Assembly: GCF_018446385.1 (NCBI RefSeq)
Contig: NC_055991.1
Coordinates: 114,929,794-114,993,793 of the forward strand
Length of the DNA stretch: 64,000 nucleotides
Reading direction: 5' to 3'
Source of the DNA: Zingiber officinale
Lineage: Eukaryota > Streptophyta > Magnoliopsida > Zingiberales > Zingiberaceae
Below the pieces are notes generated by a model that saw only the letters and a list, made by a program, of their open reading frames with translations, was not told where the DNA came from and ran no database searches. The position numbers and the translations under genes are program-made. This document shows, piece after piece, positions 10,430 through 45,469 of the stretch (positions within the stretch are counted from its first letter, which is position 1; each line of letters starts with the position of its first letter).

Positions 10430-10479
10430 CCAGGTCAGTGTTCCCGATGCCTTTCCTACCTCCTCAAGTTTCATTTCCA

Positions 10480-14387: not shown

Positions 14388-16985
14388 ATGTCTCACTTCG
14401 GGAGAACAGGGCCGCCGGACATCAAGGATACATACTCCCTCCTCGTCCTCAACATCAGCTTCCGTGAGTGCTTGCTCTTTTTGTTCGTTCTCTTTCGCGG
14501 CTTTCCGATCTGTATTTAGTGTAAAACTCGCTTGCCCTTTTGAATTGCTAGGTACCAACGCCGATGATCTCTTCCCGTTGTTTGATCGGTACGGGAAAGT
14601 GGTTGACGTCTTTATTCCGAGGGACCGGAGGTGAGCGTTGGTTGTTTGCCGTAGGATTTGGTGGCTTTTGTTTATTAATTTTATCTCTTTTTTTTTTTGT
14701 ATCTGCGAACTGGAAGGACTGGGGAGTCTCGGGGGTTTGCTTTTGTGAGGTATAAGTATGCAGATGAAGCGCAGATGGCTGTCGAAAGGCTTGATGGCAA
14801 GTTTCCTCCATGTCTTTTTTCCTTCCAAAATTTGAGGTGTTAATGTTTGGTTTTTTGTGTGAAGTAATCTGAAACTATCGGTGAATTATGAATTCTATTT
14901 GATGTTATAGGGAGGGAAGTTGATGGTCGGAATATTATGGTTCAATTTGCCAAATATGGTCCAAATGCTGAACGCATGTAAGCTATGAAATTTCTTATTT
15001 GTTTTAAAATGATAACTAGACTAATTTAATTCATATCTTTTGGTCATTTTTTAGTAAAGTGATATTTAGTTGTTAGCTCTATTGAGATGCTAATAAAAAG
15101 AAAACATATTCTAGATTATCTGAGGATGGGAAATTGTAGGCTGTTTGAGGTTTATAGGCTTAGGTTGTTGAACCATTTCATATTGGGAACATCTTTGGAT
15201 AATGGCCATCTAAACAAGTTAATGAGTCATTTTGGGGGGTGTGCCAATTTGTCACTTTTCTACTCATAATAATAAATCTAAAACTTCATAAAAAAAAAAT
15301 CTGTAGGGAAGAATCTATGGTTGAAGGGTTTAATCAAACAACAAATTCTTGGTTGTTAATGATGGATTAAGGCCCCATTGTCAATGACACATTAAGCCAA
15401 GGTGGCTCTTTGTAATGCCAAAGACAAGGATTCAGTTTGCCATTAGAGTGTACTTCATTATTTTGTTATGTGCATTCCTTTTGACTAATGTTTTTGTGTT
15501 TGTCTTATCATTAAAATTCATTTATGCTCTATCACTTTTGTCTTTTGCCAGTCATAAAGGAAAAATTATGGAAGCAATCCCAAGCAGACGGGGAAGATCT
15601 AGAAGTCGCAGCCCTCGCCCCAGGCAAGTCGTTTCTGAGCAACTGAAGTGTTTTTTTTCCTGAATCTTATTGTGAATGTGGATTCTCTTTCCATATCAAT
15701 AACTTTAAAAAGTTGCATTTGTTATGCAAAAATGATTCTTTTGTAGACTTGTCCTTCCTTTCTGAATGAACAGTGCATATATGTCTCTTTTAGTTCTTGC
15801 AAGATGACATCAGTAATAAATTTAGTCCATGGAATCTAAGGAGCTGCTTGATGGTGGAGTCGGAACTAATTAACTCATCTTTTGCTTTGATTTGTGTAAA
15901 AAGTAAACTAAAGAACAAGGCAAACTTCTAACCTGCAGTTTTCAATTCTGGTGGTTCATACTTTTTACCACTTCTTCTTCTTTTATGCTTTATTTTTTTT
16001 TACTTTCTTATATTAAGGGTAGACAAGGCTTGGTAGCCTTCAATGTCTTCAGGTTTTTTTATCGTTTGCCTCTAATTGTTGTCAAACCAAAGGCTTAAAA
16101 AATTATGCAGCTTGAAGTAAACAAGTAGTATTGTTACTTTGATCAAAGGCTTAGATATCTCAGTATCCTTCAATTCCACACTATGGGCCTGTGTCTGTTG
16201 ACTAAATTGGCTTGTCAAGCCCTGATTCATGCTATGAAAAAAACTAATATTATTTTCTGCATGTTTCAGCTATATGATTATCCTTGAACAATGAAACTGT
16301 TAGCAACTGACAACTACAAGTTTTTGCACCTTAATTCATACCATTCAAATTGTCTTTGGATGCTTTCTGGGCTGTTTATCTTTTTCCACTTGTATTAGCA
16401 CACTTTATGATTATCTAGCAGACATAGAGACAGCTATCGAGATCGAGAATATAGAAGGCGAAGCCGCAGTAGAAGCAGAGATAGGTATGAGAGAGATAGG
16501 TATAGTGACCGTGAGAGAGAGAATCGCCGCCGAAGTCGAAGCCGAAGCCGAAGCCGAAGTCCTAGTAGAAGTCCTGACTATCATAGGAGCCGTGGCAGAG
16601 ATAGCCGTAGGAGCAGGAGTGCTTCTTATGACAGGTAACATTTTGCAGAGGTGCCTTTTTGCTTCTAACTTATTGTGCATATTGTGACTTCTTTTCTTTG
16701 TTACCAGTGCTTCACCAATTAGGCGTAGTCCTAATCCTGCAAGGAGTTCATCACCCCGTCGCACTCCTCCCTCAAGCCCTGAGAAAGGGAGCCATGGCGG
16801 AAAGTCACCCCCTCCAAAAAGTGTCTCTCCTGCAGGTCGCTGTACAAATTCTCGAAGCCCATCTCCTCACAGCTCAAATGAGGTACTTAACATTACATAT
16901 TCTGATATCTTCCTTTTGCTCTTAATTCTTAGTTATGTTTTGTAAAATTGCATAATTAATTTAAAATTCTATTTTGCAGGATTGA
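14388..16985 (+). CDS. SC35: SR splicing factor SC35 (SRSF2-type)
   Basis: This nuclear pre-mRNA splicing factor binds exonic enhancers and helps recruit U1 snRNP and U2AF. Exons with matching phases: 14388-14463, 14552-14630, 14717-14800, 14915-14977, 15552-15623, 16422-16634, 16708-16882, 16980-16985; the product is 255 aa. The N-terminus MSHFGRTGPPDIKDTYSLLVLNI matches the plant SC35 start. The RRM has RNP2 (LLVLNI) and RNP1 (RGFAFVRY), then VDVFIPRDRRTGESRG and a VQFAKYGPNAERI end. The rest is an RS domain with many Arg-Ser dipeptides (RRRSRSRSRSRSPSRSPD) and a Ser/Pro tail. The last coding exon adds only Asp and the stop. Two points are unusual: the intron after 15623 begins with GC (AG|GCAAGT), and the acceptor before 14915 must be the second of two AGs to keep the frame. 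SR genes are often alternatively spliced; that is not visible here. Confidence 0.93.
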
Positions 16986-19049
16986 TGGATGCTTAGGTGT
17001 TGAAGAACTTGTGTGACAATTGCTGTGTTACTTTTTGTTCGCTGGGCTGCTATAAGGTTACATGTTGTCTTCATTAGACCGCCGGTAGCTTTCAAAATGA
17101 CTAGCAGATGGTGTTAAACTAGTTTTGGAATTTCCAGGTTTAATTGTTGGACAATTCTGTTATTGTGTAACTTAATACTATCTGCTTTCTTCCCTTTATT
17201 AATCTTCTGGACCTATTTGCTCACTATTATCATGGCTCATCTGGACTGCATTGTGCATTTTCTAGTTATCTGTTCGTGAAAAGTGCTGATGTTGCCTGTG
17301 ACAAGATGATATCAGAAGGATATTTCCTTGCTGTTCATCTTCTGGCTGATGATTTTTGAACTTCATAGTTATTGTGATATGATGGTCGTGTTGGGGGTTG
17401 ATGGTGCTGTTGAACCAGCCAAAACTTTGCAGGTTCAATCGGTGGACAATTCCTATTATTACATCACTTAATTTTTTTTCACGACCTATTCATTCATCAT
17501 TATCAGCACTTATACTGAACTGCATTGTGTATTTTCTAGTTGCCTGATCCTGAAAAGTGCTGATGTAGCTGTGACATGATATTAGACGGATATTTCCTTG
17601 CTCGTTATCCTCTGGCTGATGATCTTTGAAACCCATAGTTGTTATGATTTGATGATCGTTGTTGGTGCTGTTGAACCAGACCTTATGGTGGTTGTATGAT
17701 TCTCTGGTGATACATACTCGCTGGAGGTTGAAGTATGCACTGAACCATTTATAGTTACAAATATGTTGATGGCCTCTTAGTTGGTAAGAATCATGTCTTG
17801 TTATGTTCTAATTTCTAATAATGCTACCACATGTTTGCAAGTCTTGTAGCACACAAGAGCAGTGATAGCTGCGATGAAGACCTGCTTTCCTGTTTCAGTT
17901 TATGCATGATGATTTATATTCTGACTGTTAGCACATGGATATGATGCAGTACACACCTCAATGGTTATGCATCTATTGATGGTCTAGCACAATGAACAGC
18001 ATCGTCAACAACTTCTAGGTTTTGACATGGATATTTTACTTTTTTTTTATGATTATTATTATATTACTGGTGATTTGGTGCCCATATCTTGTTAGGTTTT
18101 GCAAGTCATTGTTTTCTTGTAGATCCTTTCTTCGTATACTTTTAGCTTGGAGTTACTCTTGTTGAAACATAGAAATAGGAATAAGATTCCAAATATAGTT
18201 TAGAAAAACATGGTTTATGGTTTGATGATGATGATGATAATGCAGATCATGTAGGTTTTGTTTGCTATTGTGGGGCGGGGGAGGGGATATACTTGTACAT
18301 ATGCATTTTTACTATCAAGCATACTTGTATTCGTGCACAAAGCAAATGGAAATTAATAAGAAAAAAGGATTTCGTAGGAGGGGATTACATGTCTTTACCT
18401 GAATGTTTTATTACTAGTGATTACTGGATCCGGAGCCCCTTTTGTGTGACACCACTAGTGAAACCATGATGCAGCATTAGGTTTTTTTTTCTCTCGAATG
18501 TTTATTTGCTTTTCAAGGTACATGAAAAATAAAAGGTTATTTGATTGGCAAGTCAGCTTGCAAAGTGCCAATCGACTAGGATCATGATGTCTTAGTGAAA
18601 GCTATATTTCAGTTATATTTAGTAATTTTAAGATTGTCGTAATAGGTCTGTAAAATTGAAATGTTTGGGACTCCTCATGTTCGTTAACTCACTCATTTTA
18701 TAACTCTGTTAAAGCTTCTTTCAGGCCCACTGGACAAATTGATTAATGATTTATTAAAATGTTATTAATAGCTATAGATGAAACGATAAATTTTAATAAA
18801 AATTTGGCTTCATATAATCTTAGTCCAGAAGTCTTATATAATCCTTAATTAAATTAAGGTTAGAATGATAATCTTAGTCTAGAAGTCTTATATAGTTGGG
18901 ATTTGAACCGTACATGATCAATTCAGAAGATACAAGTTGATTAAATTAATTAATTAAAATTTAAATACTGTGCTCACTTCGCCGTCTGCTCATTGTTGCC
19001 GCTGTGCTCAGATGCCCGCCGGTCGTGCCTCAGGCGCCTGCAGGTCGTT
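16986..19049. other. 3' region of SC35 and spacer, with a duplicated segment
   Basis: 16986 to about 17220 probably holds the SC35 3' UTR. A segment at about 17222-17420 is repeated with divergence at about 17476-17680; both carry CTGCATTGTG, ATTTTCTAGTT, GGATATTTCCTTGCT and CTGGCTGATGAT. Beyond 17700 there is only AT-rich sequence, with a short repeat ATAATCTTAGTC...GTCTTATATA near 18816 and 18869. No gene is seen. Confidence 0.55.
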
Positions 19050-19910
19050 CCTCAAAAAGCAGCAACTCATGATCGAAATTTTTCATCAATTAGTATCTGA
19101 ATTATAATTTAAATATCTTATCATGGTACCATAGTCGAGGGACAACATAGTGATTAAATAAAAAAAAAATGATAATCTCAATTAATTTCATTGACTATTC
19201 TTGGGATGATCGGTCCGATTTTACGAAAATTTTTCACCGGCCAATAAGGTAAATTAGGAAGCGCTCGCGGTCGTCAATCCAGAAGTCCAACATCTTTTGA
19301 TTACATCTGTCATTTGGAGGAAAAATTCTTATAAGTATATCGTAACTGGGGTTTGAACCATGGATATCTGGGTGGGACAATATATTGATCAAACAAAAAA
19401 AATGATTAACCAGACTGGGTAACGTCGAGCCTAGGGTGACCGTCCCAGTCCCATGAAAGTTCCCACCGGTCACCAAGATAAATCGGGAAACGCTCGTAGC
19501 GGGAAGTTCAGGAGCCTAGCATCATTTAGTTGCGTGCTCTATTTGGAGGAAAAATTCATGCAAATTTGTCATAGCTGAGGCTCGAACTGCGGGTGCTTGG
19601 GTGACAACCTAGATGTCCTACCGCTGCACCATAGCTCTGGGGGCAACATATTGATCAAGCAAAAAAAAAATGATTAACCAGGCTAGGTAACGTCGAGTCT
19701 GGAGTGACCAGCCCGGTCCAATGGAAGTTTTCCACCGGTCACCAGGGTAAATCTGGAAGCGCTCGTAGTGGCCAACCCAGGAGCCCAGCATCCTTTAGTT
19801 ACGTGCCCCATTTGAAGGAAATATTCTTGCAAATTTATCATAGTTGGGGTTCGAACCGCAGGTATCTGGGTGACAACCTGGATGCCTTATCACTGCATCA
19901 TAGTCTCGGG
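19050..19910 (-). mobile_element. Head-to-tail array of tRNA-type SINEs on the minus strand
   Basis: Read on the minus strand, three copies follow each other: 19661-19910, 19391-19642 and 19156-19380 (the last lacks the head), plus a divergent head at about 19050-19135. Complete copies begin near AGCTATGGTGCAGCGGTAGG, an A-box-like tRNA head, followed by GTTCGAGCCTC or GGTTCGAACCCC-type B boxes. A body of about 150 bp follows (ATTTTTCCTCCAAAT, GATGCTGGG, GCGCTTCC, ATTTACC, GGTGACCGGTGG), ending TTAATCATTTTTTTT. The spacers between a tail and the next head are alike (GATCAATATGTTGCCCC), so copies may have arisen by tandem duplication rather than separate insertions. Related sequences are at 35148-35306 and 50427-50665. 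Confidence 0.75.
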
Positions 19911-20493
19911 AAGTGCTTCACGGTCCCATATCCCAGAAATCTTTGAAGGGATTTTTTGAGGAGTTTCAATACCACTTAGTTGATAAGAACGTCCTATCGT
20001 TGAAGCGGCAACCTCATTTAATAAGCTTCAAATTAAGAATTTTTAATTGATAAGAATTTACGCACGTGGGAGCTTGAATCCAAACATACTGATCAAACAA
20101 GAAGCATAAAAAAAACAGCTTAGGGGCACAATAATCAGAAATCTAATCAAACAAGAAGTTAGCCGGAACAATCATAGCGGCAGGTGCAAAAGAAAATCAA
20201 AAAAGCAACAGCATACATGAAACCATCCAAATCGCCGGACAACCTGTGCAACACCGGGGAGCCACATGGAGTTTCCACTTTACTCCAAATCCAGTTCAAA
20301 AACATAAAAAAGGAAATAAGATGCTCGCAAAAAAGGAATCGAAGAGATCGGAGCATACGGAGGTCGAGAGCGGAAGTAAGTCAGTAACAAATCTCCTCTC
20401 TCCCGTTCTGAAAAAAACAAAGATGATTTTGCGATTCAATTCAAGGGAATTCAACAGAATGTTACTGAGGCAAACGAGGCGGGTAGTTGCAAG
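19911..20493. other. Spacer with no recognisable gene
   Basis: The sequence is AT-rich. A minus-strand frame of 65 codons at 20159-20356 begins MLRSLRFLFCEHL but has no recognisable domain and no partner exon. It could be chance or the orphaned first exon of a lost gene. Confidence 0.35.
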
Positions 20494-22391
20494 TGTTAAG
20501 AGTTAAAGCAGATGAAAGGACATCTGTTTCCCTTCAATTTCTAGACTATTCAAATTCTTCCATGAGAAAGAGAATGAGTTATCTTCCGTATATAAAATTA
20601 CGTCCAAGGTCTAAGAAGAAGGGAGAGAAGTTGTGTGCGATGTTTATGCAAGGTCAAAGAGAAAGGATTTATCTTATATGTGAAAGGTCTCTGTATAACA
20701 TTCATCCGTGAGCACAAAAGAGAGAGAAGTGGTTACTGCTAAGAACATTCAAGGTTCGTTCGTTCGTTTACTAAAGAGGGATTTGATTTGTGAATCTTGA
20801 GAGACGGTTCAATTTTTTGTGATCGTTTCTTGCCGACGACAAGTTCTTCAACGCAGTGTCATTCTTCGTCTTCTTTTCTGAGCATTGTAAGTTTTTAGGG
20901 TTTACAGATTTCATTTTCTGTATTCTTTTCATGCTTTAGAACCAACAATGATATTAGAGTAGCGAGTTTCTAAATTGCGTGAAACTCATCTCTTGGAAAT
21001 CGCGACTTCGTGTCGAAGATTTCCTTTTGAGCCGGCAAGCGCCTCGCGATCATCACTGGTACAGGCGCCTACGAAGTGTGCTAGGGACCACGTCGCGCAC
21101 TAGTTGTTGTGTTGGAGATCTGGTCGGAAGGCCAGCGATTGGCCGCCGTGGTCGGCGATCTCAAGTTTATCGTGACATAGAAAGAGTTTGATTAATCGAT
21201 TGATTTAATCGATTAAGCAATTTCTTCGGTTTTGCTTTTAAGAAACAAAAACGAAAGAAAGTTTTTTTTTTTACAGGTTAAGTTTAAACAATCATATTTA
21301 GATTTGATCCAATTAGTTTGAACCAATCTGTTCTAATCAGATCCAGGTTTGATCAAACTATTGATTGATTTAATCAGATTAATTTAGTCCAAATCAGAAT
21401 CGATCTATTTAGGACGATCAATTAATTAGACCAGATGGAATCATACTGGTTATGTTTAATCAAATTGGCTAGATTTATTCTAATATGTCATATTTAATCA
21501 AATTGGGCCAGATTATCCAATGGATCAGAATTAATCAAATAAGCTTTGGTTTGATCAATAAGTCCGAGTTACTTAAATGAGTTTTGGTTAAATAATAACA
21601 ATTGAGCATTCCAATTAGATTAGTTCTAATGAAAATAAGGGAACAAGGTAATGCTTAAGGTCTAGTTTCCCAATCGACCGATCTAGAGCATTAATCAACT
21701 GGAGCCCCTCAAATAAAGAAAATGAATTGATTTTTCTTATTTGCTTAATTATTCTATGTATTAGTTTTATGCATATGTGTGAATTAAAATGAACTGATTT
21801 TGTTACTAGTTTATTGGTTTTGTAATAACTTTCTTAGCAATAATTGCTTAATGTGCTTGCTGTCGCACAATTCATTTTTCCTAGTATATGAAATGAATGT
21901 TCTTACATGATTTTTGTGACTAGATGACCTTTCTGAATTAACTTGGACAAGTAGAAGATGTTAGAGTTAAAAAGATGAAAGGGTACCACTTTCCCTTCAT
22001 CTTCTAGAACATTCAAATTCCTCGAGGAAGAGGATGAGTCATCTTCCTGATATAAAATTGCGTCCAATGTCTAAGAAGACAAGCTGTGTGCGAGGTTTGG
22101 GCAAGGTCAAAAAGAAAGGGTTCGTCCCGTGTGTGAAAGGTCTCTGTGCAAGGTTCGTCTATGTGCACAGAAGAGAGAGAAGAGGTTGCTGTAAAGAACA
22201 TTCAAGGTTGGTTGGTCCATTTACTAAAGAGGAATTTGGTTTGTGAATCTTGAGAGATGGTTTGATTTTTCATGATCGCTTCTCGCCGACGACAAGTTCT
22301 TCAACGCATCCTCATTCTCCTCTGAGAATTGTAAGTTTTTACAGATTACATATTTCATTTTCTATATTTTTTTCATGCTTTAGAACCAACA
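20494..22391 (+). mobile_element. Small non-coding LTR retrotransposon (TRIM/SMART-like), ends intact
   Basis: Direct LTRs lie at 20494-20947 (454 bp) and 21959-22391 (433 bp); both start TGTTA(A)GAGTTAAA and end TTTAGAACCAACA, giving TG...CA ends. Just inside the 5' LTR, ATGATATTAGAGTAGCG is a worn version of the initiator-Met tRNA primer site (TGGTATCAGAGC). A short purine run, AAGTAGAAGA, precedes the 3' LTR. Flanks gcaag and acaag are a possible 5-bp target duplication with one mismatch. The 1.0-kb interior has no recognisable gag or pol and contains repeated phrases such as AATCAGATT...AATTAG. The element looks structurally complete but non-autonomous; LTR divergence suggests an insertion of moderate age. 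Confidence 0.78.
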
Positions 22392-22812
22392 ACAAGGTTG
22401 TAGACTTCCATTTCAATGGAGTTCATGGGTAGCAATAGGAGAAGAAATCTCGCCATCGACATAGGGAGGATCGATTCTCTCAAATCAGACGATCCCTATC
22501 CTCTAGCCTCTCCAGCGCAATAAGGTCCTCTTTCCCGTTGGAGAGCAACAGTCATGACCTGGGTTGGTGTAGTAGTCAGGTTGTGGCACATCGCTAGGTG
22601 AGGGGGGAATGGCGACTGATACGAGTTATGATGAGCAGGTTCAGGAAATGACAGGGATATTAAAGTCAAGGTGAGGTGGTGATCAAGGTTAGGATAGGAT
22701 GATGTTTGTTACCTGATTTTGTTGATCGTCCTACATCAAAGTCTTGAAAGCGTGCTCGAGCATTTCCTGAGCAGGATGCTCAGATAGGGTCGACCAGTTA
22801 TAAACTTGATCT

Positions 22813-23540
22813 AACATAAGGTTGCTTGTGTGCGCTCGACAGGGCAAAGCCCGAGAGAGCTTAAAGGTACTCAGCATTATAAAGCTCTTAGCATATGATC
22901 AGCTGAGTGAAGGCCGAATGAACATAAGGTTACCTGTGTGCGCTCGACCGGGCAAAGCCCGAGTGCGCTTAAAGATACTTAGCCTTATAAAGCTCTTAGC
23001 ATACTATTGATCGAGCAAAGGTCGAATGAACATAAGGTTGCTTGTGTGTGCTTGACCGGGCAAAGCTCGAGTGAGCTTAAAGGTACTTAGCCTCATAAAA
23101 CTCTTAGCATACGATCAGCCAAGCAAAGGCCGAACGAACATAAGGTTACCTGTGTGCGCTCGACCGGGCAAAGCCCGAGCGAGCTTAAAGGTACTCAACC
23201 TCATAAAGCTCTTAGCATACGATCAACCAAGTGAAGGTCGAACGAACATAAGATTACCTGTGTGGCTTGACCCGGCAAAGCCTGAGCGAGCTTAAAGGTA
23301 CTCAGCCTCATAAAGCTCTTGGAATATGATCAGTCGAGTGAAGGCCGAACGAACATAAGGTTACTTGTGTGCACTCGATCGGGCAAAGCTTAAGCGAGCT
23401 TAAAGGTACTCATCCTTATAAATGTATTAGCATACGATCGACCGAGCGAAGGCTGAACGAACATAAGGTTACCTGTGTGCACTCGACCGGGCAAAATCCG
23501 AGCAAGCTTAAAAGTACTCAGCCTTATAAGAATTTCAATA
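22813..23540 (+). repeat. Tandem array A: seven ~108-bp units
   Basis: Units begin AACATAAGGTTACCTGTGTG at 22813, 22921, 23029, 23137, 23245, 23352 and 23460, a period of 107-108 bp. Each carries GCTCGACCGGGCAAAGCCCGAG (an imperfect dyad), CTTAAAGGTACTCAGCC, TCTTAGCATACGATC and a closing GAAGGCCGAACG. The period is not a multiple that would suggest a protein repeat being maintained. The array lies in the upstream half of an LTR-like region. Confidence 0.92.
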
Positions 23541-23810
23541 TACAACCGACTTAATGACTGGTCGAGATATATTCAATAAAAGGTATTATCAATATACGAC
23601 CGGTTTAATGACTGGTCGAGATATATTCAACAGAATGTATTCTCAATATACGACTGACTTAATGTCCGGTCGGGATATATTCAACAGAAGGTATTCTCAA
23701 TATACGACCGACTTAATGACTGGCTGATCAGCCGGGATATATTCAACAAAAGGTATTCTCAATATACGACTGGCTTAAAGACCGGTCGAGATATATTTAG
23801 CAGACAAGTA
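23537..23810 (+). repeat. Tandem array B: five ~54-bp units directly after array A
   Basis: Units begin CAATATACGACCGACTTAAT at 23537, 23590, 23644, 23698 and 23760 and contain GACTGGTCGAGATATATTCA and AAAGGTATTCT. The fourth unit is 8 bp longer because GGCTGATC-like bases are duplicated. Unit sequence and period differ from array A, so this is a second, independent expansion. Confidence 0.9.
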
Positions 23811-24462
23811 GTCGACAACCTTATGATAGCCTGGTGAACTTGTCGGGAAATATTCCCTCGAATCTTCTTCATTAATTAATTAGTTACAACGATACACTCC
23901 TTTGAGTATTTCATCAATAGCATAAATATAAATGACAAAGGAGGTACATCTAGGGTAGTAAAAAGATTCCTCAGAAGATTATTGCACGACGTCTAGGTTA
24001 TACTTCTCTCATCTTCTAACAAACTCTAACAAACTAGGGACCGCCTCACGATCACGGAGGTTATGTAAGGTGGTATAAAAAAGGAGAATTCTCTCCGCTG
24101 GCAAGGTACCCGACGCAACACGAACATATGCATCTGAAACTCTACTTTCTGGCATTTTTCGTTACTATTCTTCTTCCACTTTTCAAGAGAGGAGACTGAT
24201 TTGAGCATCAGAAGGCCTAGCCAGGGATTCCCATCCCGGACTTAGATCACTAACACTTTGTTGGTTCATCTGATTGTGCGCAGGATCGTTGAGGAGTTTT
24301 CTTCAGATCTCAAGAAGCTTATTATTCGTCGATCAACTACCTATCGGAGCGAGCGTACCATCTCACCGCCTTCAGACAGGATTAGCGACGAAGACAGGAG
24401 AAGGTAGGGGGAGGGATGAAATAGGGCCAGGATCGACATGGCCGTGAGAGAAGCAGCAAGAT

Positions 24463-24720
24463 CAGAGGCGATGGACGTGGAATAGGGGGCGAGGAGGAGA
24501 AGTGGTGGCACACAAGGTGCTTAAGGTGCTCAAAGGCGGTGCGCGAAGGGTTCGAGGCGGAGAACAAGGACATGCAAAGCATGCACCTAAGCTTCTTGGC
24601 CGAGTGGTATGCTACCCCCGCGACCATGACTAGGATGGACTCTAGATGGACCCAATACCATGCTCCTTTCCCTTCTGTCATTTTGCTCCGCACCACCGGC
24701 AATTGCATGCCGTCGGGTCC
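24463..24720 (-). pseudogene. Fragment of a BED-zinc-finger (hAT-derived) protein gene
   Basis: The minus strand encodes VVRSKMTEGKGAWYWVHLESILV...KKLRCMLCMSLFSASNPSRTAFEHLKHLVCHHFSS (given here in part). From memory it closely matches the N-terminal BED finger of a plant family of domesticated hAT-like proteins (KGKGAWYWAHLEP, KLRCSLC...FSASNPSRTASEHLKRGTCPNF). The two finger cysteines (RCMLC) and the later histidine/cysteine region are still visible. It is only about 85 residues long and embedded in a frame that runs into unrelated repeat DNA, so it is a captured or decayed fragment, not a working gene. Confidence 0.6.
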
Positions 24721-24835
24721 TCCTCCATGAGAAGAAGAAGCCAAGGATAATTTTGGAAATATTTTTCTATTAATCTTGGAATTGTTAAAAATCATCCATT
24801 TTGATGGTAATCTCATTTTCAATTTTGATGCCGAT

Positions 24836-24975
24836 CCAGGGGTAAAGTGGGACCCGGATGGTAGAGGAGCCAATGACACGTGGAGGTCAGAGTCAACACG
24901 GTCAACATCTCGGGCTCGGTCGGGCGGCCGGTGTATTGCCCGGGCGGCAGCGCGACAACCCAGCTCAACGCTGGG
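24836..24975 (+). repeat. Partial LTR copy
   Basis: It matches the beginning of the LTR at 33719-34545 (GGTAAAGTGGGACCCGGATGG, CAATGACACGTGGAGGTCAG, GGGTTTCC) and then stops abruptly against pol-derived DNA. Confidence 0.75.
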
Positions 24976-25183
24976 TTTCCAACAACCCATCCACGTACAC
25001 CTTCCAGGTGACTTCGGGCTCGAGGTCGTGCACCTCGGTGACGAAGTCTGCCAGAGCTTGTGCCTTTATGGCTGTTCGGGGCTGATACTGAATATCAAAC
25101 TCACTGAGCTCCGTGGTCCACTTGATCAGCCGCCCTGATGCTTCTGGATCAAGCAGGACCCTGCTCAACGGGCTGTTGGTCAT
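24976..25183 (-). mobile_element. RNase H-region pol fragment of a Ty3 element
   Basis: The minus strand encodes SRVLLDPEASGRLIKWTTEL, then FDIQYQPRTAIKAQALADFV and EPEVTWKVYVDG. These are typical of the RT/RNase H junction and the start of the archaeal-type RNase H of Tat-lineage elements. Only a fragment remains. Confidence 0.75.
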
Positions 25184-25224
25184 TACTATGATGGTATGCG
25201 CGAGAAAGTACGGACGGAGCCTCC

Positions 25225-25545
25225 GAGCGGCAACGTTAAACGCCAGAGCCGAACCGGCGGCTATATACTTGGTCTGAAGACCGTCGAGCGATGACGTTAA
25301 ACGCCAAAGCCGAACCGACGGCTATAAATACCTGGTCTGAAGACCGTCGAGCGGCGACGTTAAACGCCAGAGCTGAATCAGCGGTTATAAATACCTGGCC
25401 TGAAGACCATCGAGCGGCGACGTTAAACCCCAGAGCCGAACCGGCGGCTATAAATACCCGACCTAAAGACTGTGGAGCGGCGACGTTAAACCCCAAAATC
25501 GAGCGGCGACGTTAAACCCAGAGTCGAGCGGCGGCTATAAAGCTC
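25225..25545 (+). repeat. Tandem array C: about six ~62-bp units
   Basis: Units carry GACGTTAAACGCCAGAGCCG, AACCGGCGGCTATAAATACC and TGGTCTGAAGACCGTCGAGC; the GACGTTAAA phrase recurs near 25231, 25291, 25355, 25418, 25481 and 25508. The last unit is short. Each full unit contains a TATAAATA-like string. Its position between pol-derived DNA and the antisense ORF matches the repeat-rich spacer of Tat elements. Confidence 0.88.
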
Positions 25546-25775
25546 CACCTTCGCATCATTTCAATCTAACATGGGTCCTCTAGAAAGGAGGTGATCCTAA
25601 ACTCGATGGCCGAGCAGCAGCTCAAAAATCAAAAGATGAGGCTCTCACAAATTTAATAGCGATCGAGGGAACAGGTAACCCGCTCGGATATACACAGCGA
25701 GAGAACAAGAAATGGAAGACACAGAAAGAGTTCATTAATCAAAATAGGTCGAACGGCAAGTACATATCAACGACT

Positions 25776-28700
25776 TCACTCTAGATAATCAAAGACATCA
25801 TCAGGGATCGTGGTAAGAAGTCTGGCATGGTCACGAACAGGAATGGTGAAGTCTTTAGGGAGATGACCCTCTGTCTTCAGATAATTGACCGTGGCAGTGA
25901 TGGCCAGCTCGAACGCACACACGAGTCGAGCGCTCGCTATTTCAATAAACTCTGTCGAGCGGATATAGTTTTGCCGCAGGACGGCGGCGCGGGTCGGCTC
26001 AGCCTCTTGATATTCTTTGAACGCAGCACGGGAGGCCTCCAGCGCGTCCTGGAGGTTCTTTAACTCCTCTCGAAGAGCAGTCGCCTTTGCCGAGCGGGCA
26101 GTCTGTTCAGCGGTCAGCAGGTCCACCAACTGTTAGAGTGTATACTAAAAGCCTAGCTTTTGTAAACATTTACTTTTGAAATAAAAGAATCACATTGGTC
26201 AAATGTCTATATTTATTTGTGAAGTGTAGTTGTTCAATTAATTTATATTGTAGATAACATGGTGTGTGGTGTCACACACAGAAGATCATGTTATCAGTTC
26301 CTTATAAATTATAAACAGTTGCTCACGACTAAGATGGAAAGGAACAAACCATTGGAATAGTCGTAGTGTAATTAGGTATTAGTTTATCTTGACTAATAAA
26401 TTACACTAGTACACTCTAAGTGTATTGAGTAGGACCATTTTAGGTAAGTTCTTTTTATACTGACTTAATAAAAGAACTAGACCTTAGTTATTATGGAAGT
26501 GTATGTTCTTAATCCTAATATAATAACAAGCATATATATTTAGTATTTATTTCTTTAACTTATCAAAAGGTGAGAGATTTAGCTCGATAAATCAATAGGC
26601 CCGATAAGTTGGGAAATGATATTACTTATAGTGTGTGTTGTTGATTATAGAAGGAAACTGTGTCCTAGTAATCTAGGTTGAGAATGTCCCGAAGAGGATC
26701 TCATAAGGATTGTCATGTTAAACCCTGCAGGTGGACTTAGTCCAACATGACAATAAGGTTGAGTAGTACTCTTGGACTAAGACGTTAATCAAAGTGAGTT
26801 GTCAGTAACTCAATTAAATTAATGGACATTCAATATCTTAAACACAGGGAGACTGACACACTCATAGTAAGGAGGAGTCTATAATGTAATTTGGGATTGG
26901 TGCGATAGTACAATAATAACTCTCTAGTGGAATGAGTTATTATTGATGAACTTGAGTTGTGTGTTCGGGGCGAACACGGGATACTCAAGCTCGTCAGAAG
27001 GCTAAATCCAATTTCTCCTCTAGGTCCCTGTCGTAGCCTCATTAATGCCTTAAATCCACTCATGAAAAAGCTCATCTTGATGTCCAAGAGAGGGTCGACC
27101 CATGACTTGGTGACCAAGCCATGTGGCCGACCACTTCCTCCTCAATGGGGTCGGCCTCTTGCTTGGTGCCCAAGCAAGAAGGGACCGGCCACAATAATTC
27201 AAACTAGGAGGGGTGTTTTAAATTTTTAAAATTTTCTCTTTGTAGATATCTACAAGTTTTAAAAGAGAGATTTTAAAATATAAAACTTTCCTTATTTGAA
27301 TTAGGCCACATGATTTAAAAGAAAGTTTAAAAGTTTTAAAAATTTTCTTTTTTAACCATCCCCATGGTTTTAGAAAAAAGGAAGAGAAGTTTTAAATTTG
27401 AATCTTTTTAATTTTGTAACTATGTTTAAAAAAGGAAATTTTAGAAGAGAAGTTTTAAATTTTAAAACATGATTTTAATTTTTAAAACTTTCCTTTTTTA
27501 ACATCCACAAAAGGAAAGAGAGCTTGTAAAATTTTATAAGAGAATTTTTTCTTTTATAAAATTTTATAAAAAAATTATTTCTCTTGATGATAATGTGGCC
27601 GGCCACCCTTGCTTGGTGTCCAAGCAAGGGACCGACCATTAAAAGCATCTAATCATCCATGATTCAATCAATTGAATCAATGATTGAATCAATCAAGAGG
27701 AAAGAAAAGGAAAAATAAAAGGGGAAAAGTCAAAACAAGAGGAAAATTTTAATTTTTGTAAAAATATTTTCCTTATTTGCTTTGGGCAAGTAATATAAAA
27801 GAAGGGGAGAAGAGGCCTCATGGTACATCAATTCTTATTCTCAAGTTGATGCTCCCTCTTGTGGTCGGCCCTCTCCCTCTTCTCTTTCCCCTTGCTCTCT
27901 TTTGCTCCGTGGTGGTGGTGGTGGCCGAATACTAGAAGGAGGAAGAGCTTTTGGGTGGTGTTCATCTTGGAGGATCGTCACCCACACGACGTCCAAGGCG
28001 AGGCGAGGAATACGGCAGAAGATCTCGAGGTTATTAGTTTACAAAGAAGAGGTATAACTAGTAATTATTTCCCGCATCATACTAGTTCTTCTTTGTTAAG
28101 AATTCCAAACACAAGAGGTATTAGATTCTAGTTTTTCGAATTTGTTATTTGAGTTTGTGTTTTTTTTTATTTTTCGAATTTGTGATTCGATTGTTCCTTT
28201 TGGTTAAACCTAGAGTTATATAAGGAAATTAAATATTAGCTTTCCTTAAAAGGCTTTGTCTAGGCGGTGGTGGATGCTCACATACCCAAGAAGGCCATGT
28301 GCCTCGCTATGCAGTCCTGGAAGTCAATTTTGGAAATTAATATTTAATTGAATTTATAACATAGGTTGATTTGGATCAATAGTGTTAAGTTTCTCTTGCG
28401 ATCCAAATCTAAACCATTAAGAACAGATAAGTTAAATTTGGGAATCAATAATGTTAAGTTCCCTTTGCGATTCCTAATTTAACTTCTAAAGAACACAATA
28501 GGTTGTTTAGGAAAGGTTCGACACTTGTACAAAATTTTTGCACAGTGGAACTGGTACGATCTTCCTAGGACCAACCAACACCAACTCCTTGACCCTCCGC
28601 GTAAGGGTCCGGGCCTCAGTGTTCTTTATCTCCAGATCGGAGATAGCCGTGTTTTTTCTGGTGTTGGCCTGCTCGATCTTTTTGTCATATGTCTTAACCT

Positions 28701-30610
28701 CAGTCTTGAGCCGATCCACCATAGTCTGCAGGCCAGAAGATTTGTGCTGCTCGGCCTCCAGCAGTCTCTTGGTCTCGTCAAGGTCCGCCTTCAACTTGGC
28801 GTAAGAGGGGCCTTGAGGGGGAGCCCCACCAGAAACCTTGAGCTTCTTGAACTCCTCTTCTAGGAGCGCCAGGCGGTTGCTCACTGCAATACTTTTCACC
28901 CAATACTACAACAAGCTTGGAGGCAAAAACATCAGTGCCGAACGGAAGTAAAAAAGAAAAAAAGTTGAGAATACCCCGGTGGCCTGTTGTATGTGGTTGT
29001 TGCCGAACAGCCCCGGGGGCATCAAAGTAACGCGCGCTCGAGCGTCCTCCCAGACCTTCGCCAGGGGTCCCCGAATGGTTATTTGGTGTTCGGGGCTAGC
29101 CTGCCGGTCGGTCGCCTGTAGATTTTCCTCCGTCGGTAGATGGAGTATGGCCTTGATAATCCTGCGCCCGCCCGGCGTGGATTGAGCAGACGCTGAAGGG
29201 GCAGAGGACTGGTCGATCGGATCGGAGCGGATAAGAGATCGCCTAATTTTCCGCTGAGCGGGAGGGAGTGAGCTAAGGGGCTGGGCAGCGATGGGGTCAG
29301 AAGGTCAATCGCCTTAAGAAGGGGTCCGGTCGGAAGATAGCGCTTCCACCCTCGCGGGAGCCAACGGAGGGGCCGGGAACGCCCATCTGCTCGGACACAC
29401 GCACAGTTGAGGTGGCCGAGCGGGTTGGTGTGCCCGTTCGGCGTCGTTTGAGTCCAGACAACGGAAGTTCATCACCAGAAGACCTGGCTTCCTCGGCCTG
29501 AATGGCCGGTTGAGTACCTAACGGAGCGATCTCTCCTGCCACCTTGGTAGTGGCGGTCCGAGCGGCAGACGCATCGCCCGCCGTCTGCGCCTCTTCGCTC
29601 TCGCCTTCATGAGAACCGACCGGAGCGATGCTGAGTTTCTCCGCCTCCTTCGTTGCAACTGCCTCTATCTCGGCAGTCTTGAGTTTCATCATGCCGAGTA
29701 CCACCGACTTCATCATAGTGACAGCTGCAAGAAAGAAAGAAGAAATTAGTTATACCCAAAGAAAAAAGGAGAAAGTTATTTCTTACCAGGGCCGCCCGGA
29801 AGCCTCGCTCGGGTCGGACTTAAGCCGAACATATACATCATTCCTTCCGTGAGCAGCTTATGGATATCCAACTTCAGCCCGGCTAGCATGTTGGCTGCGT
29901 GAAGGTAGGCGGGCTCGGTCCTATACCGCTTCAGGTCAGTCTAGGTAGGCAAAGCGGTCTGCCATCAGGTCCGGAAGGGAGGTGGTTCGGGGAATCGCAA
30001 GAAGAAGAAATAATCCTTCCAATGCTTATTGGAGGATGACATGTTCTCAAAGAAGACGAGGCTGATCCAAGACTGAAACAAAAAGGTACCTATCTCGGAC
30101 TGCTTCGGATAATAAAAGTAATGAAAAACTTGAGGCTTTAGAGGAATGTTGTGCATTCGGAAAAGAACAACTACGCCGCACAGCGGTCGAAAGGAGTTAG
30201 GGACAAGCTGGGCAAGTGGAATGTGAAAGTAGTTGCAGACTTCTATCATGAACGGGTGGATGGGAAAGTGAAGACCCGCTACGAATTGGTCTCGAAAAAA
30301 GGTGACAGTGTCGGCCGGCGGGTCGTGGGGTCGGGCGGACGGCTCGGCTAAAACTATCTCATGGTCAGGGGAAAGATTGAAAGCACCTATCAGGCTGGCG
30401 GCATCACCCGAGTCGGACCGACTCTCCATGTTGTGGTACCAAAGGTCGGGAGAAGGGTTAGAGGAACTGACCATGACCGGAGAACGAAAAGCTTGGTGGT
30501 TTCGTCGAGGGATAAACGGGAAAAGGCCGACAGGAGTAGAAACAGCGCATAGGAAGGAAAGCCAAAACAAACGACAAAGGAGGACGATGAAGGAACTTAC
30601 GGGAAAGTGA
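25776..30610 (-). mobile_element. Antisense extra ORF of the Tat-type element (gypsy-type transposon domain), fossil
   Basis: Coding-like segments run on the minus strand at about 29965-30570, 29297-29716, 28590-28899 and 25776-26125. The first contains DTVTFFRDQFVAGLHFPIHPFMIEVCNYFH-type sequence with PLCGVVVLFRMHNIP, the plant putative gypsy-type transposon domain (recalled as PF04195). The second is acidic and low-complexity; the third and fourth are charged helices (LEEEFKKLK, KADLDETKRLLEAEQHKSSG, LREELKNLQDALEASRAAF) that look like a coiled coil. A solo LTR (26131-28580) sits between the third and fourth. On the minus strand a TTTATAAAAC string near 30741-30750 could be a TATA box. The whole is broken and now a fossil; function of this ORF in the family is not established. 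Confidence 0.65.
26131..28580 (+). mobile_element. Solo LTR, plus orientation (long-LTR family)
   Basis: The 2450-bp unit starts TGTTAGAGTGTATACTAAAA and ends GGACCAACCAACA, with perfect 5-bp target duplications CCAAC (26126-26130 and 28581-28585). It contains no gag or pol. GTAATATAAAAG near 27790 is a TATA candidate. Start sequence and the CATGGTGTGTGGTG...CACACACAGAAGATC block resemble Angela/Tork-type Ty1/copia LTRs (from memory). TG...CA ends plus an intact target duplication indicate a solo LTR left by recombination. Confidence 0.88.
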
Positions 30611-30898
30611 AACGTAGGGGAGAAAAGCGTGCCGAGGGTTCATCGGAACGCAAGAGGAGAAGGTTGCCGGAGCACTGGGCGTGAGGGAGGTCGCCTAAGC
30701 ACGAAGGTGGCAGCAATGGAGCAGAAGTCGACCTCGAGGTTTTATAAAGATCGAGCTCGACCAGCCGTAGCCGTCCGATCTAGGTCACGGGGATCAAAGC
30801 TTGCATCCGGTCGTGGAATTCAAACCGCCACATGTCCCATCGTGGCAAACGCCCCCGTCGTACGATGACGGCGGCGGCGCCACGTGGCGCCAGGTTAC

Positions 30899-33400
30899 TG
30901 TTGGTTGGTCCTAGGAAGATCGTACCGGTTCCGTTATACAAAAATTTTGTACAAGTGTCGAACCTTTCCTAACAACCTATTGTGTTCTTTAGAAATTAAA
31001 TTAGGAATCGCAAACAGAACTTAACATTATTAATTCCAAATTTAACTTATCTGTTCTTAATGGTTTAGAGTTGGATCGCAAACAATGCTTAACATTATGG
31101 ATCCAAATCCACCTATGTTAAAAATTCAATTAAATATTAATTTCAGAAATCGGCTTCCAGGTTAAACATGGCGAGGCACTAGACCTTCTTGGATATGGGA
31201 GCAACCACCACTTTCTAGTCAAAGTCTTTCAATAAAATCTAATATTTAATTTCCTTATATAACTCTAGGTTTAACCAAAAAGAACAATCGAATCACAAGA
31301 TCGAAAAACAAAGAAACACAAACTCGAAACAAATCTGAATATCTAGAATCTCTAGCCTCTTGTGTTTGGAATTCATACAAAGAAGAACTAGTATGATGTA
31401 GAAAATAATTACTAGTTATACCTTTCTTTATAAGCAATAACCTCTTGATCTTCTACTGTATTCCTCGCCTCCTCTTGAACATCGTGTGGGCGACGATCCT
31501 CCAAGATGAACACCACCCAAAAGCTCCTCCTTCTCTAAGATTCGGCCACCATCACCACTAAGGAACAAAAGAGAGCAAGGGGAAAGGGAAGGGGAGAGGG
31601 CCGGCCACAAGAGAATAAGAATTGATGCAATCCCTACTTCTCTTCTTCTCCTTCTCTTTGTATCCGGCCACACAAAGCAACCACAAGAGGTGGCCGGCCC
31701 TAGCATGAAGAGAAGCAAGGGCCGACCCTTAGGAGAAGACTAGAGAGAAGAGAGAAAAGAATAGAATACATCATGAGGTCTCTCCTCCTCTTCTTTTATA
31801 ATACTTGCCCAAGGCAAATAAGGAAAGATTTTTACAAAAAATTAAAATATTCCTCTTGATTTCCTTTCCCCTTTTTATTTTTCCTTTTCTCCTCTTTTAT
31901 ACTCTTAATGGCCGACCCCTTGCTTGGACACTAAGCAAGGGTGGCCGGCCATATCATCATGAAGAGAGAGAATTTTTTTTTTATATAAAATTTTATAAAA
32001 GAAGGAATCCTCTTATAAAATTTTACAAGCTCTTTTTCCTTTTGTAGATGTTAAAAAAAGGAAAGTTTTAAAAATTAAAACCAAGTTTTAAAATTTAAAA
32101 ATTCTCTTATAAAATTCCCTTTTTAACATGGTTACAAAAAATGAAAGTTTTAAATTTAAAACTCTCTTTTTTAAAAATCATGTGGATGGTTAAAAAGGGG
32201 AAGTTTTAAAACTTTTAAAACTTTCTTTTAAACCATGTGACCTAATTCAAATAAGGAAAGTTTTGTAAATTTAAAATCCCTCTTTTAAAACTTATAGATG
32301 TCTACAAAGAGAAGATTTTAAAAATTTAAAACGCTCCCTAAACTTTGAATATAGTGGCCGACCTCCTTCTTGCTTGGGCACCAAGCAAGGGGCCGGCCCC
32401 TTTGTGGAGGAAGTAGCCGGCCCCATGGCTTGATCACCAAGCCATGGGTCGCCCCCCTCTTGGACACCAAGATGGACTTTTCATGAGTGGATTTGAGGCT
32501 TCATTGAGGCTACGACAGGGACCTAGAGGAGAAATTGATTTTGGTCTCCCGATGAAATTAAGCTTCTCGTGTTCGCCCCGAACACCTAACTTAATTTCAT
32601 CAATAATAATTCATACCACTAAAGAATTATTATTGAACTACCATACCAATCCCAAAAATATTTTGGGTTCATTCTTATTATGAGTGTGTTAATCTCCCTA
32701 TGTTTAAGATGTCGGATGTCCACTAATTAATTGAGTTACTGACAACTCATTTTAATTAATATCTTAGTCCAAGAGTAGTACCACTCAACCTTATCGTCAT
32801 GTCTGACTAAGTCCATCTGCAGGATTTAACATGACAATCCTTATGAGCTACTCTTGGGGACATTATCAACCTAGATTATTAGGACACAGTTTTCTTCTAT
32901 AATCAACAACACACACTATAAGTAATAGCATTTGCCAACTTATCAAGCCTATTGATTTATCGAGCTAAATCTCACCCTTGATAAGTCAAAGAAATAAATA
33001 CTAAATATATGTGCTTATTATTATATTAGGATTAAAAGTATACACTTCCATAATAACAGAGGTATTGTTCTTTTATCTAATCAGTATAATAAAATTACCT
33101 CAAATGGTCCTGCTCAATACACTCAGAGTGTACTAGTGTAATTTTATAGTTAAGATGAACTAATACCAAATTACACTACAACTATTCCAATGGTTTGTTC
33201 CTATCCATCTTAGTCGTGAGCTACTGTTTATAATTTATAAAGAACCGATAACATGATCTTCTGTGTGTAACACCACACACCATGTTATCTACAATATAAA
33301 TTAATTGAACAACTACACTTAGCATATAAATGTAGATATTGACCAATGTGATTTTTAAATGTTTATACAAAAAGCTAGACTTTTAGTATACACTCTAACA
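30899..33400 (-). mobile_element. Solo LTR, minus orientation, same family as 26131-28580
   Basis: The 2502-bp unit is the reverse complement of the family: on the plus strand it begins TGTTGGTTGGTCCTAGG and ends TAGTATACACTCTAACA, flanked by perfect 5-bp duplications GTTAC (30894-30898 and 33401-33405). It differs from the other copy by many small changes and a net 52 bp. It carries its own target duplication, so the two copies inserted separately and are not arms of one element. Confidence 0.88.
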
Positions 33401-33718
33401 GTTACAGGGTGACATTTAATGGAGGCCATTACTCGGCGTGGCCGCGTGCTCGGTTTTAATGACGGGGATTTGCACGAATTTCGAGGAGATTTCGATGACG
33501 ACAACTTTGACCACAAGCAGACCCAGACATGGAGCGATAAGATTAACAAGTACCGGCACACTTCTCGTCGAGCGGCCAACGAAGGTTCGACCGAGCGAAT
33601 CACCCAAGCCCACCTGAATCATTTCATCATCACTGTCGAGTGACCGGCAAAACACTAAACCAATTTGTCCAGTCAGTCGGACTTACAGCCTCCTTCGACT
33701 AGACTTGAAGGGGAGGCA

Positions 33719-34545
33719 TGTGATCCAGAGGTAAAGTGAGACCCGGATGGTAGAGGAGTCAATGACACGTGGGGGTCAGAGTTAGCACGGTCAACATCCC
33801 GGGCTCGCTCGTTCGGCCGGCGTACTGCCCAGGCGGCAGCGCGACAGCCCAACTCAACGTTGGGTTTCCGACGCCTAGGGGTCGAGCGGAGCCCCCGCTC
33901 GACCGGACGGTGGACACTGCTCGACTACGCGTGGCGAGGCGAGAGCAGGATGAAGCATTAGGGGACGAGCGGGCCTCCCACTCGGCTCGGTCACTCCCTC
34001 AACAGTATGGGGGCGCAGCCGAGCGGACCCCCCACTCAGTCTTGTAGACGACAAGATGAGCAGGAGGGAATATCTTCCTCAGGGCAGGCATCACCGACAA
34101 GCGGCATGGTTGGCGGCATGGTCAGGCAGAGAATCGTACGGTGGAAGCCTCCACTGTCACGTCAGGGATATGCCCGGTCTGTTAAGGCACGACGTCAGAC
34201 ACGCTTTTCTGACACACTCATTACAGGTATGCTTTGAGAAGCGTGCACATCTCGATAAACGTGCACACGCCTTCAGGGATCTCTATATAAGGACCCCCAG
34301 ACTTCAACGGAGGTATAGGCGACTCATCACTGTAGCTACAGTCTCGTCATTCTACTTCAATTTCTTGCTGCCGGAGGCTGACTTGAGCGTCGGAGGACTG
34401 TTGCCAGGAACCCGTTCTCAGCTCGGTTTTGTGCTTGCAGGTTCCCGCCAAAGGTCTACGTCACTCACAGGGCTGCGCGGAGTCAACTAGAACACCACGT
34501 CCCCAGCGACCGTCGACTCAGCACTCGAACTGGATCAGATGTGTT
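33719..34545 (+). repeat. 3' LTR of the Tat-type element
   Basis: It follows a purine-rich tract and starts TGTGATCCAGAGGTAAAG. TCTATATAAGGACC at about 34282 is a good TATA candidate, followed by leader-like DNA (GACTTGAGCGTCGGAGG, GTGCTTGCAGGTTCCCG). The right end is estimated from the change to AT-rich spacer. Confidence 0.65.
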
Positions 34546-36169
34546 TGTTGATGTGACTAGAGTGATTGGTTACTTAGGAATAATTTATTATCTAAATAAA
34601 ATAAAATTAAATAATATAACCTTAATAACCTTTTGTTCAATAACTAAAATTATCAACTATTACCCCAACTAAATGCACTCTTAACAGTTATACGCTTTTG
34701 CTCCTTTGCATATCATTAGGTTAACTCTGAGAAAAGTGGCCAATAGTTCTTGATCCATTCTAAATGCCAATAAGGATTTTAATTTTTTAAAGTTATTATA
34801 AACATTGCCACACAAACTAATTCAGATTTTTGTTTCTTTTATGGTGATAGTTTCAATATTTTTAGATGATCGATTTTCTAACAGTAATCTAACCTCTTAA
34901 TGGTGAATTCTCATCCTCTAATATGTTTTATCTAATTTTTATTTTCTAAAAATTTCTTAAGTATTCAAATTATTTAACCTTTTAAAACTATATATATACA
35001 TATATATTTTAAACTAAAAGTATTAAATTTCGTACCTTTTAAAATTATTATTCTTTAAATTTAATGCTCCCGTGCAAAACATGCTTCTAATGTAATTTAA
35101 AATTGAATGTAAAATATTATAAAATTTTCTTAGGATATAATACTAGTGTAAAAAAATTATGATAATTTTAATTAATCTCATTAATTATTTTTGTGATGAT
35201 CGGTTTAGTTTCATGAAAATTTTCTATCGATCATCAGGATAAATCGAAAAGTGCACACGACGATCAACTCGAAAGCCCAGCATCCTTTGAGTGTGACCCT
35301 CATTTGAGGATATAATACTAGTAGAAATAATGACAAAGGATTATACATAATTAATTGTCTAAAATTAATGAATAATCTCAATCGTTAACTAGGGTGGTAA
35401 ATAAATTAAATAGTTATTAGTAAATTTAATATTTAGTTTGATAAGAATTTATTGTATTCATTGTGGTAAAAAGGATTTAGTAAATTTAATACGCTCGCCC
35501 CCAACGTCCCCGCCAACCCATCCCAAGGCTAACACGGAGGAAGTAAATCACGGACGACTACTAGCCTTTGGAATAATGACTAACACATAAAAAAAATATT
35601 TATCTCGACAACTAAATCTATCTGAGGGGACGAATTTATTGTATTCATATTCAATATGGACAACGTAAATTAAATAAATAACTTCAACATTTATGCTCAA
35701 TTTACGAATGTTCATTAATAAAAATTATAAACTATTATAAATAATATTCATGGATAATATAACGATTTTTTTTATGAATCATATATTCTATAATAAAATA
35801 GTTATCAAACTTATAAATAAATAAAAATTAATCTAAATAAATAAATAAATAATTTCAAATTTAAATTCATTAACTAATTAAATAAGTTAAAAAAATAAAA
35901 ATCAAATAAATTTAAATTAAAAATTGATAATATCGAAAAAAAACAAACTCAAATCAAGCTCGAATTAAAATCAAACTAAAAAAGGTAAATATTTAATAAT
36001 TTGATTCATTTTGGAATGACTGGGTTCAATTTTAAGAAATATAAATTGAAACTCATTTAAACTAATAATGCTCATTAATTTTGAAAATTTTATAATTGTA
36101 AAAATTTAAAATTGTAATTTGACTTGGACTGATATAATCAGCCCGACCGACCAGTATCTCGCGACAAGG
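34546..36169. other. AT-rich intergenic region upstream of CDKC
   Basis: The region is mostly A/T homopolymer-rich spacer with no coding pattern. It contains the truncated SINE at 35148-35306. The last ~50 bases before 36170 lead into the CDKC promoter. Confidence 0.6.
35132..35322 (-). mobile_element. 5'-truncated SINE with 16-bp target duplication
   Basis: The body at 35148-35306, read on the minus strand, contains GGATGCTGGGC, ATTTATCCTGATGATCGATA and a T-rich end. It matches the 3' two-thirds of the SINEs at 19.1-19.9 and 50.4 kb. It is flanked by perfect copies of AGGATATAATACTAGT (35132-35147 and 35307-35322). 5' truncation plus a long target duplication is what target-primed reverse transcription leaves. 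Confidence 0.85.
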
Positions 36170-36177
36170 TATATATT
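36170..36177 (+). promoter_or_regulatory. Candidate TATA box of CDKC
   Basis: TATATATT lies 264 bases before the main start codon, which would give a leader of about 230 nt. In the leader are a possible 33-codon uORF (36192-36293, only if transcription starts before 36192), an ATG-TGA pair at 36293, and an in-frame upstream ATG at 36338. Confidence 0.45.
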
Positions 36178-36433
36178 GCAATCCCTAGACAATGGCATTC
36201 AGTTCAGCACTCGCCGCTGTCGTTCTCGTCCTTGTCGGGTCGCCTTCTTACCTTTCTCTTACGACTCCATCGATCGCTGCTCCAAAACCCTAATGTGAGG
36301 ACTCAGCCATTGCTGGAGCATTAGGTTTAGTGTACCGATGTCTCTGTCGATTTTGAAGCGAATGACTTGTTCCTGTCTTTGCTGCAGTTTCTTTCTGTTT
36401 TTTTTTTTTTGCTGGTTCTGGAGGCGGAGGAGA

Positions 36434-42558
<6,125 letters not shown>

Positions 42559-45381: not shown

Positions 45382-45469
45382 GGGAGGTGTGCGGTGGTGT
45401 GTGTCACCGCCATGGATGTGGTGGTGAAGAGTATAGTAGCGGAGTCGACTTGTGTTTGCGCCACATATA

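What the first reader, a model, noticed from the sequence alone, without database searches (positions are those of the whole stretch)
26126..33405. Two long solo LTRs of one family, in opposite orientation, inside one Tat-type element
The copies at 26131-28580 (+) and 30899-33400 (-) each have TG...CA ends and their own perfect target duplication (CCAAC and GTTAC), so this is a double independent insertion, not one element with long inverted ends. The result is a ~7.3-kb near-palindrome: ~2.45-kb arms around a 2.3-kb spacer holding antisense-ORF DNA. TATA candidates in both arms point inward, so convergent transcription would give double-stranded RNA. Such a structure could seed siRNA against the whole LTR family.
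Basis: partly seen in the sequence, partly recalled or inferred. Interest (0 to 1): 0.72.

Follow-up and report, generated by a model that had tools for sequence, protein, structure and literature searches.

The report
Two opposed solo LTRs in ginger
Two single long terminal repeats of one very common copia retrotransposon family landed separately, in opposite directions, in an older gypsy-type element on one of two homologous plant chromosomes (apparently ginger); the structure is real but ordinary for such a repeat-filled genome.

Summary
A (26131-28580, +) and B (30899-33400, -) are complete TG...CA LTRs, 87.5% identical as inverted arms, each with a perfect 5-bp duplication (CCAAC, GTTAC). 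The homologous chromosome C5 has both sites empty, with one copy of each 5-mer: two independent insertions after the haplotypes split, and an assembly artefact is unlikely. The host is the 3' part of a Retand-type (Tat) element: antisense TRP28 ORF, tandem array, 817-bp 3' LTR. The LTR family is Ty1/copia. C5 carries a third, full-length member about 330 bp from the A site. The genome matches the published 'Zhangliang' ginger assembly. The family is huge: 63,962 LTR-start matches, one per 48 kb, so roughly 800-1,700 comparable convergent pairs are expected by chance, and 5 of 38 sampled copies have an opposed family LTR piece within 1.5 kb. A hairpin RNA is geometrically possible but untested: TATA-like motifs lie on both strands, the arms share 120 exact 24-mers, and the C5 copy's LTR shares 2.7% of its 24-mers with A or B. 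'siRNA against the whole family' is not supported. Ordinary nested transposon turnover; low interest.

The parts
26126..26130 (.). left target-site duplication of A, CCAAC
   Evidence: read; single CCAAC at the empty C5 site
26131..28580 (+). solo LTR A (2450 bp) of a Ty1/copia family, TGTTAG...CCAACA
   Evidence: host DNA, not internal-region DNA, on both sides; absent from C5
28581..28585 (.). right target-site duplication of A, CCAAC
28581..30898 (-). spacer: internal region of the Retand/Tat host upstream of its 3' LTR, with broken antisense ORFs
   Evidence: ORFs; continuous with both flanks on C5 and in other copies
29965..30639 (-). antisense ORF piece with TRP28 / Transposase_28 (PF04195)
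   Evidence: E 8.5e-8, 32.8 bits, above the 26.2 cut-off
30894..30898 (.). left target-site duplication of B, GTTAC
30899..33400 (-). solo LTR B (2502 bp), same family, opposite orientation
   Evidence: absent from C5
33401..33405 (.). right target-site duplication of B, GTTAC
33401..33720 (+). last part of the Retand internal region, ending in a purine-rich tract before the 3' LTR
   Evidence: printout; continuous in other copies
33721..34537 (+). 3' LTR of the Retand host (TGATCCAG...CTGGATCA, 817 bp); exact first base is my reading
   Evidence: of 38 rows outside C6-own and C5, 11 start at query 317-325 and 32 end at 1137-1140; inverted 8-mers at the ends read
25224..25495 (+). 63-bp tandem array (4.3 copies) of the Retand host; homology of 4 other host copies to the window stops at or near its left edge
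   Evidence: L055-L058
25496..26130 (+). Retand host DNA left of A
   Evidence: L055-L058

Best explanation
Two copies of an abundant Ty1/copia family inserted separately and in opposite directions into the 3' part of an older Retand (Tat) element on one haplotype of a diploid plant, apparently ginger, after the two haplotypes diverged. Each then lost its internal region and one LTR by LTR-LTR recombination, leaving a solo LTR with its 5-bp duplication. Shown: complete LTRs, duplications, empty allelic sites, family identity, commonness of solo LTRs and of opposed neighbours in a sample. Inferred: the recombination step, because full-length precursors at these two sites are not seen. The most likely function is none beyond genome turnover; any transcription or siRNA would be an incidental effect shared with many other copies.
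For: Target duplications and ends. Both sites empty with one target 5-mer on C5, which is colinear with the window, with gaps, over 8000-15999 (96-99%, one 131-base piece 80%) and 33401-46124 (94-98%). A and B each have nearer relatives elsewhere (93%) than each other (87.5%). 11 of 38 other sampled copies are flanked by equal 5-bp duplications as solo LTRs (L005, L008, L009, L015, L016, L017, L022, L026, L029, L033, L038; L016/L017 and L026/L029 look like allelic pairs, so about 9 events). A relative with two LTRs 98.1% identical, its own ACTGC duplication, and separate ORFs matching RVT_2, Pol_BBD and gag_pre-integrs lies in the same host copy on C5. 63,962 LTR-start matches genome-wide against 6 for the reversed control.
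Against: No full-length allele at the A or B site was seen, so insertion as a full element is inferred. The sampled copies are the best-scoring ones, not a random sample. Three insertions in one host copy over two haplotypes is locally dense; family density alone gives 1.3 expected against 3 seen of 9 other host copies with a family LTR nearby (P about 0.14), and 0 of 38 sampled LTR copies have the tested Retand segments in their 1.5-kb flanks. The species is inferred from assembly statistics, not given by a tool.
Confidence: 0.93

Rival explanations
1. The inverted pair is a Muk-like hairpin locus: convergent or read-through RNA from the arms is diced into siRNAs that silence the copia family in trans.
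For: The geometry fits: A reads rightward and B leftward into the spacer. 24 perfect runs of 21 nt or more lie between the arms. An inverted repeat of MuDR, Mu killer, silences MuDR in maize (passages of PMC2725412).
Against: No transcript or small-RNA data. TATA-like motifs lie on both strands. 120 exact 24-mers are shared by the arms; 15-30% of the 24-mers of 33 related LTRs and 2.7% of those of the C5 copy's LTR occur in A or B. About 800-1,700 similar pairs are expected under random placement. The pair is absent from the other haplotype. In maize, small RNAs of the sampled LTR retrotransposons are lost in rmr1 and rdr2 mutants (passages), which I read as a route that needs no inverted pair.
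Confidence: 0.03
2. One element with long inverted ends, or an inverted duplication of one LTR made by assembly or repair.
For: Near-palindromic layout.
Against: Different target duplications at A and B, two separate empty sites 2.3 kb of host DNA apart on C5, arms 12.5% different with separate closest relatives.
Confidence: 0.01
3. The copia family prefers Retand DNA as a target, which concentrates A, B and the C5 element there.
For: Three independent insertions in one host copy over two haplotypes; family LTRs near the searched segment in 3 of 9 other host copies, L044, L047 and L049.
Against: 1.3 of 9 expected from density alone, P about 0.14; 0 of 38 other sampled LTR copies have the tested Retand segments in their flanks.
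Confidence: 0.03

Closest known systems
Solo LTRs of Ty1/copia retrotransposons in plants
   Same: Complete TG...CA LTR, 5-bp duplication, no internal region; relatives with internal region, copia-type domains and a tRNA-Met-type primer site in the same genome
   Different: Only the opposed pairing; the LTRs are long (about 2.4-2.5 kb)
Retand lineage of Ty3/gypsy (PMC11963269, passages; its place in the Tat clade is recalled)
   Same: Antisense TRP28 ORF upstream of the 3' LTR and a tandem array in that region
   Different: This copy is a degenerate 3' part; no pol of it was found in the window
Mu killer (Muk) of maize, as described in passages of PMC2725412
   Same: Inverted repeat of transposon sequence
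   Different: Muk is an inverted repeat of MuDR with genetic evidence of silencing; here two diverged solo LTRs around a 2.3-kb spacer, with no expression evidence

Membership tests
Solo LTR | TG...CA ends and equal 5-bp target duplication | tested here: met
Solo LTR | no internal region on either side; host DNA continues across | tested here: met
Solo LTR | relatives of the LTR that still adjoin an internal region | tested here: met
   L003 and L010 preceded by GAGAT and internal DNA, L004 and L007 followed by ATTGG and internal DNA; L007 and L010 lie 7.5 kb apart on one strand. C5 copy with two LTRs, 76% to A and 72% to B
Ty1/copia | copia-type reverse transcriptase and gag-pre-integrase domains in a relative | tested here: met
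   RVT_2 3.2e-64, Pol_BBD 6.9e-19, gag_pre-integrs 6e-15 on separate ORFs of the C5 copy; the solo LTRs themselves carry no coding region
Ty1/copia lineage (Angela, SIRE and others) | RT-based lineage placement | not testable with these tools
   no plant element reference set at hand
Retand / Tat | antisense TRP28 (PF04195) ORF upstream of the 3' LTR | tested here: met
   feature described in passages of PMC11963269
Retand / Tat | lineage-typical reverse transcriptase | tested here: inconclusive
   no pol domain near the host in the 24 distinct window ORFs scanned; the RVT_1 at 59855-61528 belongs to another element; not every ORF was scanned
Muk-like siRNA hairpin | hairpin transcript and arm-derived small RNAs | not testable with these tools
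   no RNA data

The most novel reading that the evidence does not exclude
A haplotype-specific, recently formed inverted LTR pair acts as a hairpin locus and lowers the activity of the nearest copia subfamilies in plants that carry this haplotype.
Probability: 0.03. Interest if true: 0.6.

Novelty: new member of a known kind. Interest (0 to 1): 0.12.

Why it matters
As a single locus it matters little. It is a clean illustration of haplotype-specific retrotransposon turnover: two solo LTRs on one chromosome and a two-LTR relative on the other, all in the same host element, since the two haplotypes split. If inverted LTR pairs did make siRNA, a genome expected to hold hundreds of them would be a good place to test that statistically rather than at one locus.

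Tried and rejected
Plasmid collection search with A: no match, as expected for plant DNA. tRNA scan of the window with a bacterial-code program: none. Promoter reasoning: TATA-like motifs are conserved at several places on both strands of 36 aligned LTRs, so no promoter was assigned. Target preference for Retand: not significant. Pfam on 28 distinct ORFs (24 of the window, 4 of the C5 copy) gave no pol for the host. Paper searches with words for inverted LTRs, hairpins and siRNA showed no title on this locus or on inverted LTR pairs in ginger among the rows listed; I saw listings only, and this is no proof of absence. (solo-LTR literature) was seen as a listing and not used. The copia lineage was left open.

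Full report
Observation. Self-comparison of the window finds A (26131-28580) against the reverse complement of B (30899-33400) as its strongest match. A starts TGTTAG and ends CCAACA, flanked by CCAAC on both sides; B, read on the minus strand, has the same ends and is flanked by GTTAC (plus strand) on both sides. A global alignment gives 87.5% identity over 2361 ungapped columns, K2P 0.139, 31 gap openings, longest perfect run 51 nt, and 24 runs of at least 21 nt. The spacer is 2318 bp.

Where it lies. The window is on contig C6 of a 3.09-Gb genome with 211 contigs. A published diploid ginger assembly has a total length of about 3.1 Gb, 22 pseudochromosomes of 88.69-194.39 Mb and scaffold N50 141.27 Mb (passages of PMC8342452). 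Here C15 has 141,269,392 and C2 194,392,478 bases, so I infer that this is that assembly ('Zhangliang' ginger, Oxford Nanopore plus Hi-C). C5 and C6 behave as homologues: with some gaps, window 8000-15999 matches C5 at 96-99% (one 131-base piece at 80%) and window 33401-46124 at 94-98%.

Empty sites. On C5 the left flank (window 23500-26130, 91%) ends at 140733513 and the spacer starts at 140733509; the spacer ends at 140745614 and the right flank starts at 140745610. Each overlap is the 5-base target, present once. Both LTRs are therefore best read as insertions on the C6 lineage after the haplotypes split; precise loss is not a known route for LTR elements (general knowledge). Between haplotypes K2P is 0.033 just outside the host element and 0.06-0.10 inside it, mostly transitions, as expected for methylated repeat DNA (inference). 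At 6.5e-9 per site per year (the rate in passages of PMC8342499) 0.033 is about 2.5 million years, a rough upper bound for both insertions.

A third insertion. C5 has its own member of the same family, minus strand, about 330 bp into the spacer, with ACTGC duplications. Its LTRs are 2377 and 2393 bp, 98.1% identical, K2P 0.019, about 1.4 million years at the same rate. Separate ORFs of its 5-kb internal region match RVT_2, Pol_BBD and gag_pre-integrs. Its 5' LTR is followed by ATTGGTATCAGAGC (reverse complement of a stretch printed), which I recognise from memory as the tRNA-Met primer site; passages of PMC6317226 say that all copia lineages primed by complete tRNAs use tRNA-Met. It is a more distant relative: 76% to A, 72% to B.

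Host. The spacer carries a broken antisense ORF with PF04195. Passages of PMC11963269 call an antisense TRP28 ORF between pol and the 3' LTR a characteristic of Retand elements (97% of clusters) and report tandem arrays there in about half; that Retand belongs to the Tat clade is recalled. The 3' LTR runs about 33721-34537 with inverted ends TGATCCAG...CTGGATCA. In 2 of 4 fetched copies the left flank runs directly into the spacer, and in the other 2 to within a few bases. In 6 of 9 further copies the spacer runs directly into the right flank; L044, L045 and L048 have small gaps or about 50 extra bases but no LTR exactly at the B site. To the left, homology to those 4 copies stops at or near the 63-bp array (25224); no pol of the host was found.

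How unusual. The first 21 bases of the LTR, with up to two mismatches, occur 63,962 times (31,840 and 32,122 per strand; reversed-pattern control 6), one per 48 kb. Under random placement about 790 convergent pairs with starts 4.9-7.3 kb apart, and about 1,690 up to 10 kb apart, are expected. Among the first 100 listed places, all exact matches on C1, 1 convergent and 2 divergent pairs lie within 10 kb, against 25 same-direction pairs, which will include the two LTRs of full elements. Of 38 other sampled copies (the 20 loci cut out in each, the window's own two dropped) 5 have an opposed family LTR piece of at least 120 bp in their 1.5-kb flanks and 4 a same-direction one; pieces reaching within 60 bases of the matched stretch were not counted, and L026/L029 look allelic. 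11 of the 38 are solo LTRs with equal 5-bp duplications, some nested in other copies of the family. The ginger paper gives 33.66% Copia and 'S:I = 2.06' as its removal rate (section 6). So an opposed pair of solo LTRs is what this genome can be expected to produce routinely.

The siRNA idea. Geometry allows a convergent or hairpin RNA, but nothing measured supports it. TATA-like motifs are conserved on both strands (for example at A-LTR positions 173, 180 and 1664 in sense, 112 and 1403 in antisense, each in 32-35 of 36 LTRs). The arms share 120 exact 24-mers; 15-30% of the 24-mers of 33 related LTRs and 2.7% of those of the C5 copy's LTR occur in A or B. A pair of this kind could at best touch close relatives, and many other pairs could do the same. 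Muk in maize is a known silencing inverted repeat (passages of PMC2725412), but it derives from MuDR and has genetic evidence.

Verdict. Two independent insertions is right and now has allelic support; the functional extension is unsupported and the structure is ordinary.

Noticed in passing
56994-58121 and 62715-63863: Direct repeats (82-84% identical pieces) flank ORFs with zinc knuckle, aspartyl protease, RVT_1, RNase H and integrase zinc-binding domains (59855-62750): a separate old Ty3/gypsy element.
   Followed up: partly
43069-43620 (-): ORF with FAD_binding_3 and a weaker squalene-epoxidase match, probably an exon of a plant monooxygenase gene.
   Followed up: no
24833-24980: 148 bp 89% identical to the first part of the Retand 3' LTR at 33722-33869, just left of the host's tandem array: possibly a truncated 5' LTR of the host or a related LTR.
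   Followed up: partly
16000-23500: This 7.5-kb stretch corresponds to about 54 kb on homologue C5 (140676333 to 140730878), so the other haplotype holds much extra DNA there.
   Followed up: no
A-LTR positions about 1019-1507; B-LTR about 953-1265: The LTRs themselves contain self-complementary stretches.
   Followed up: partly
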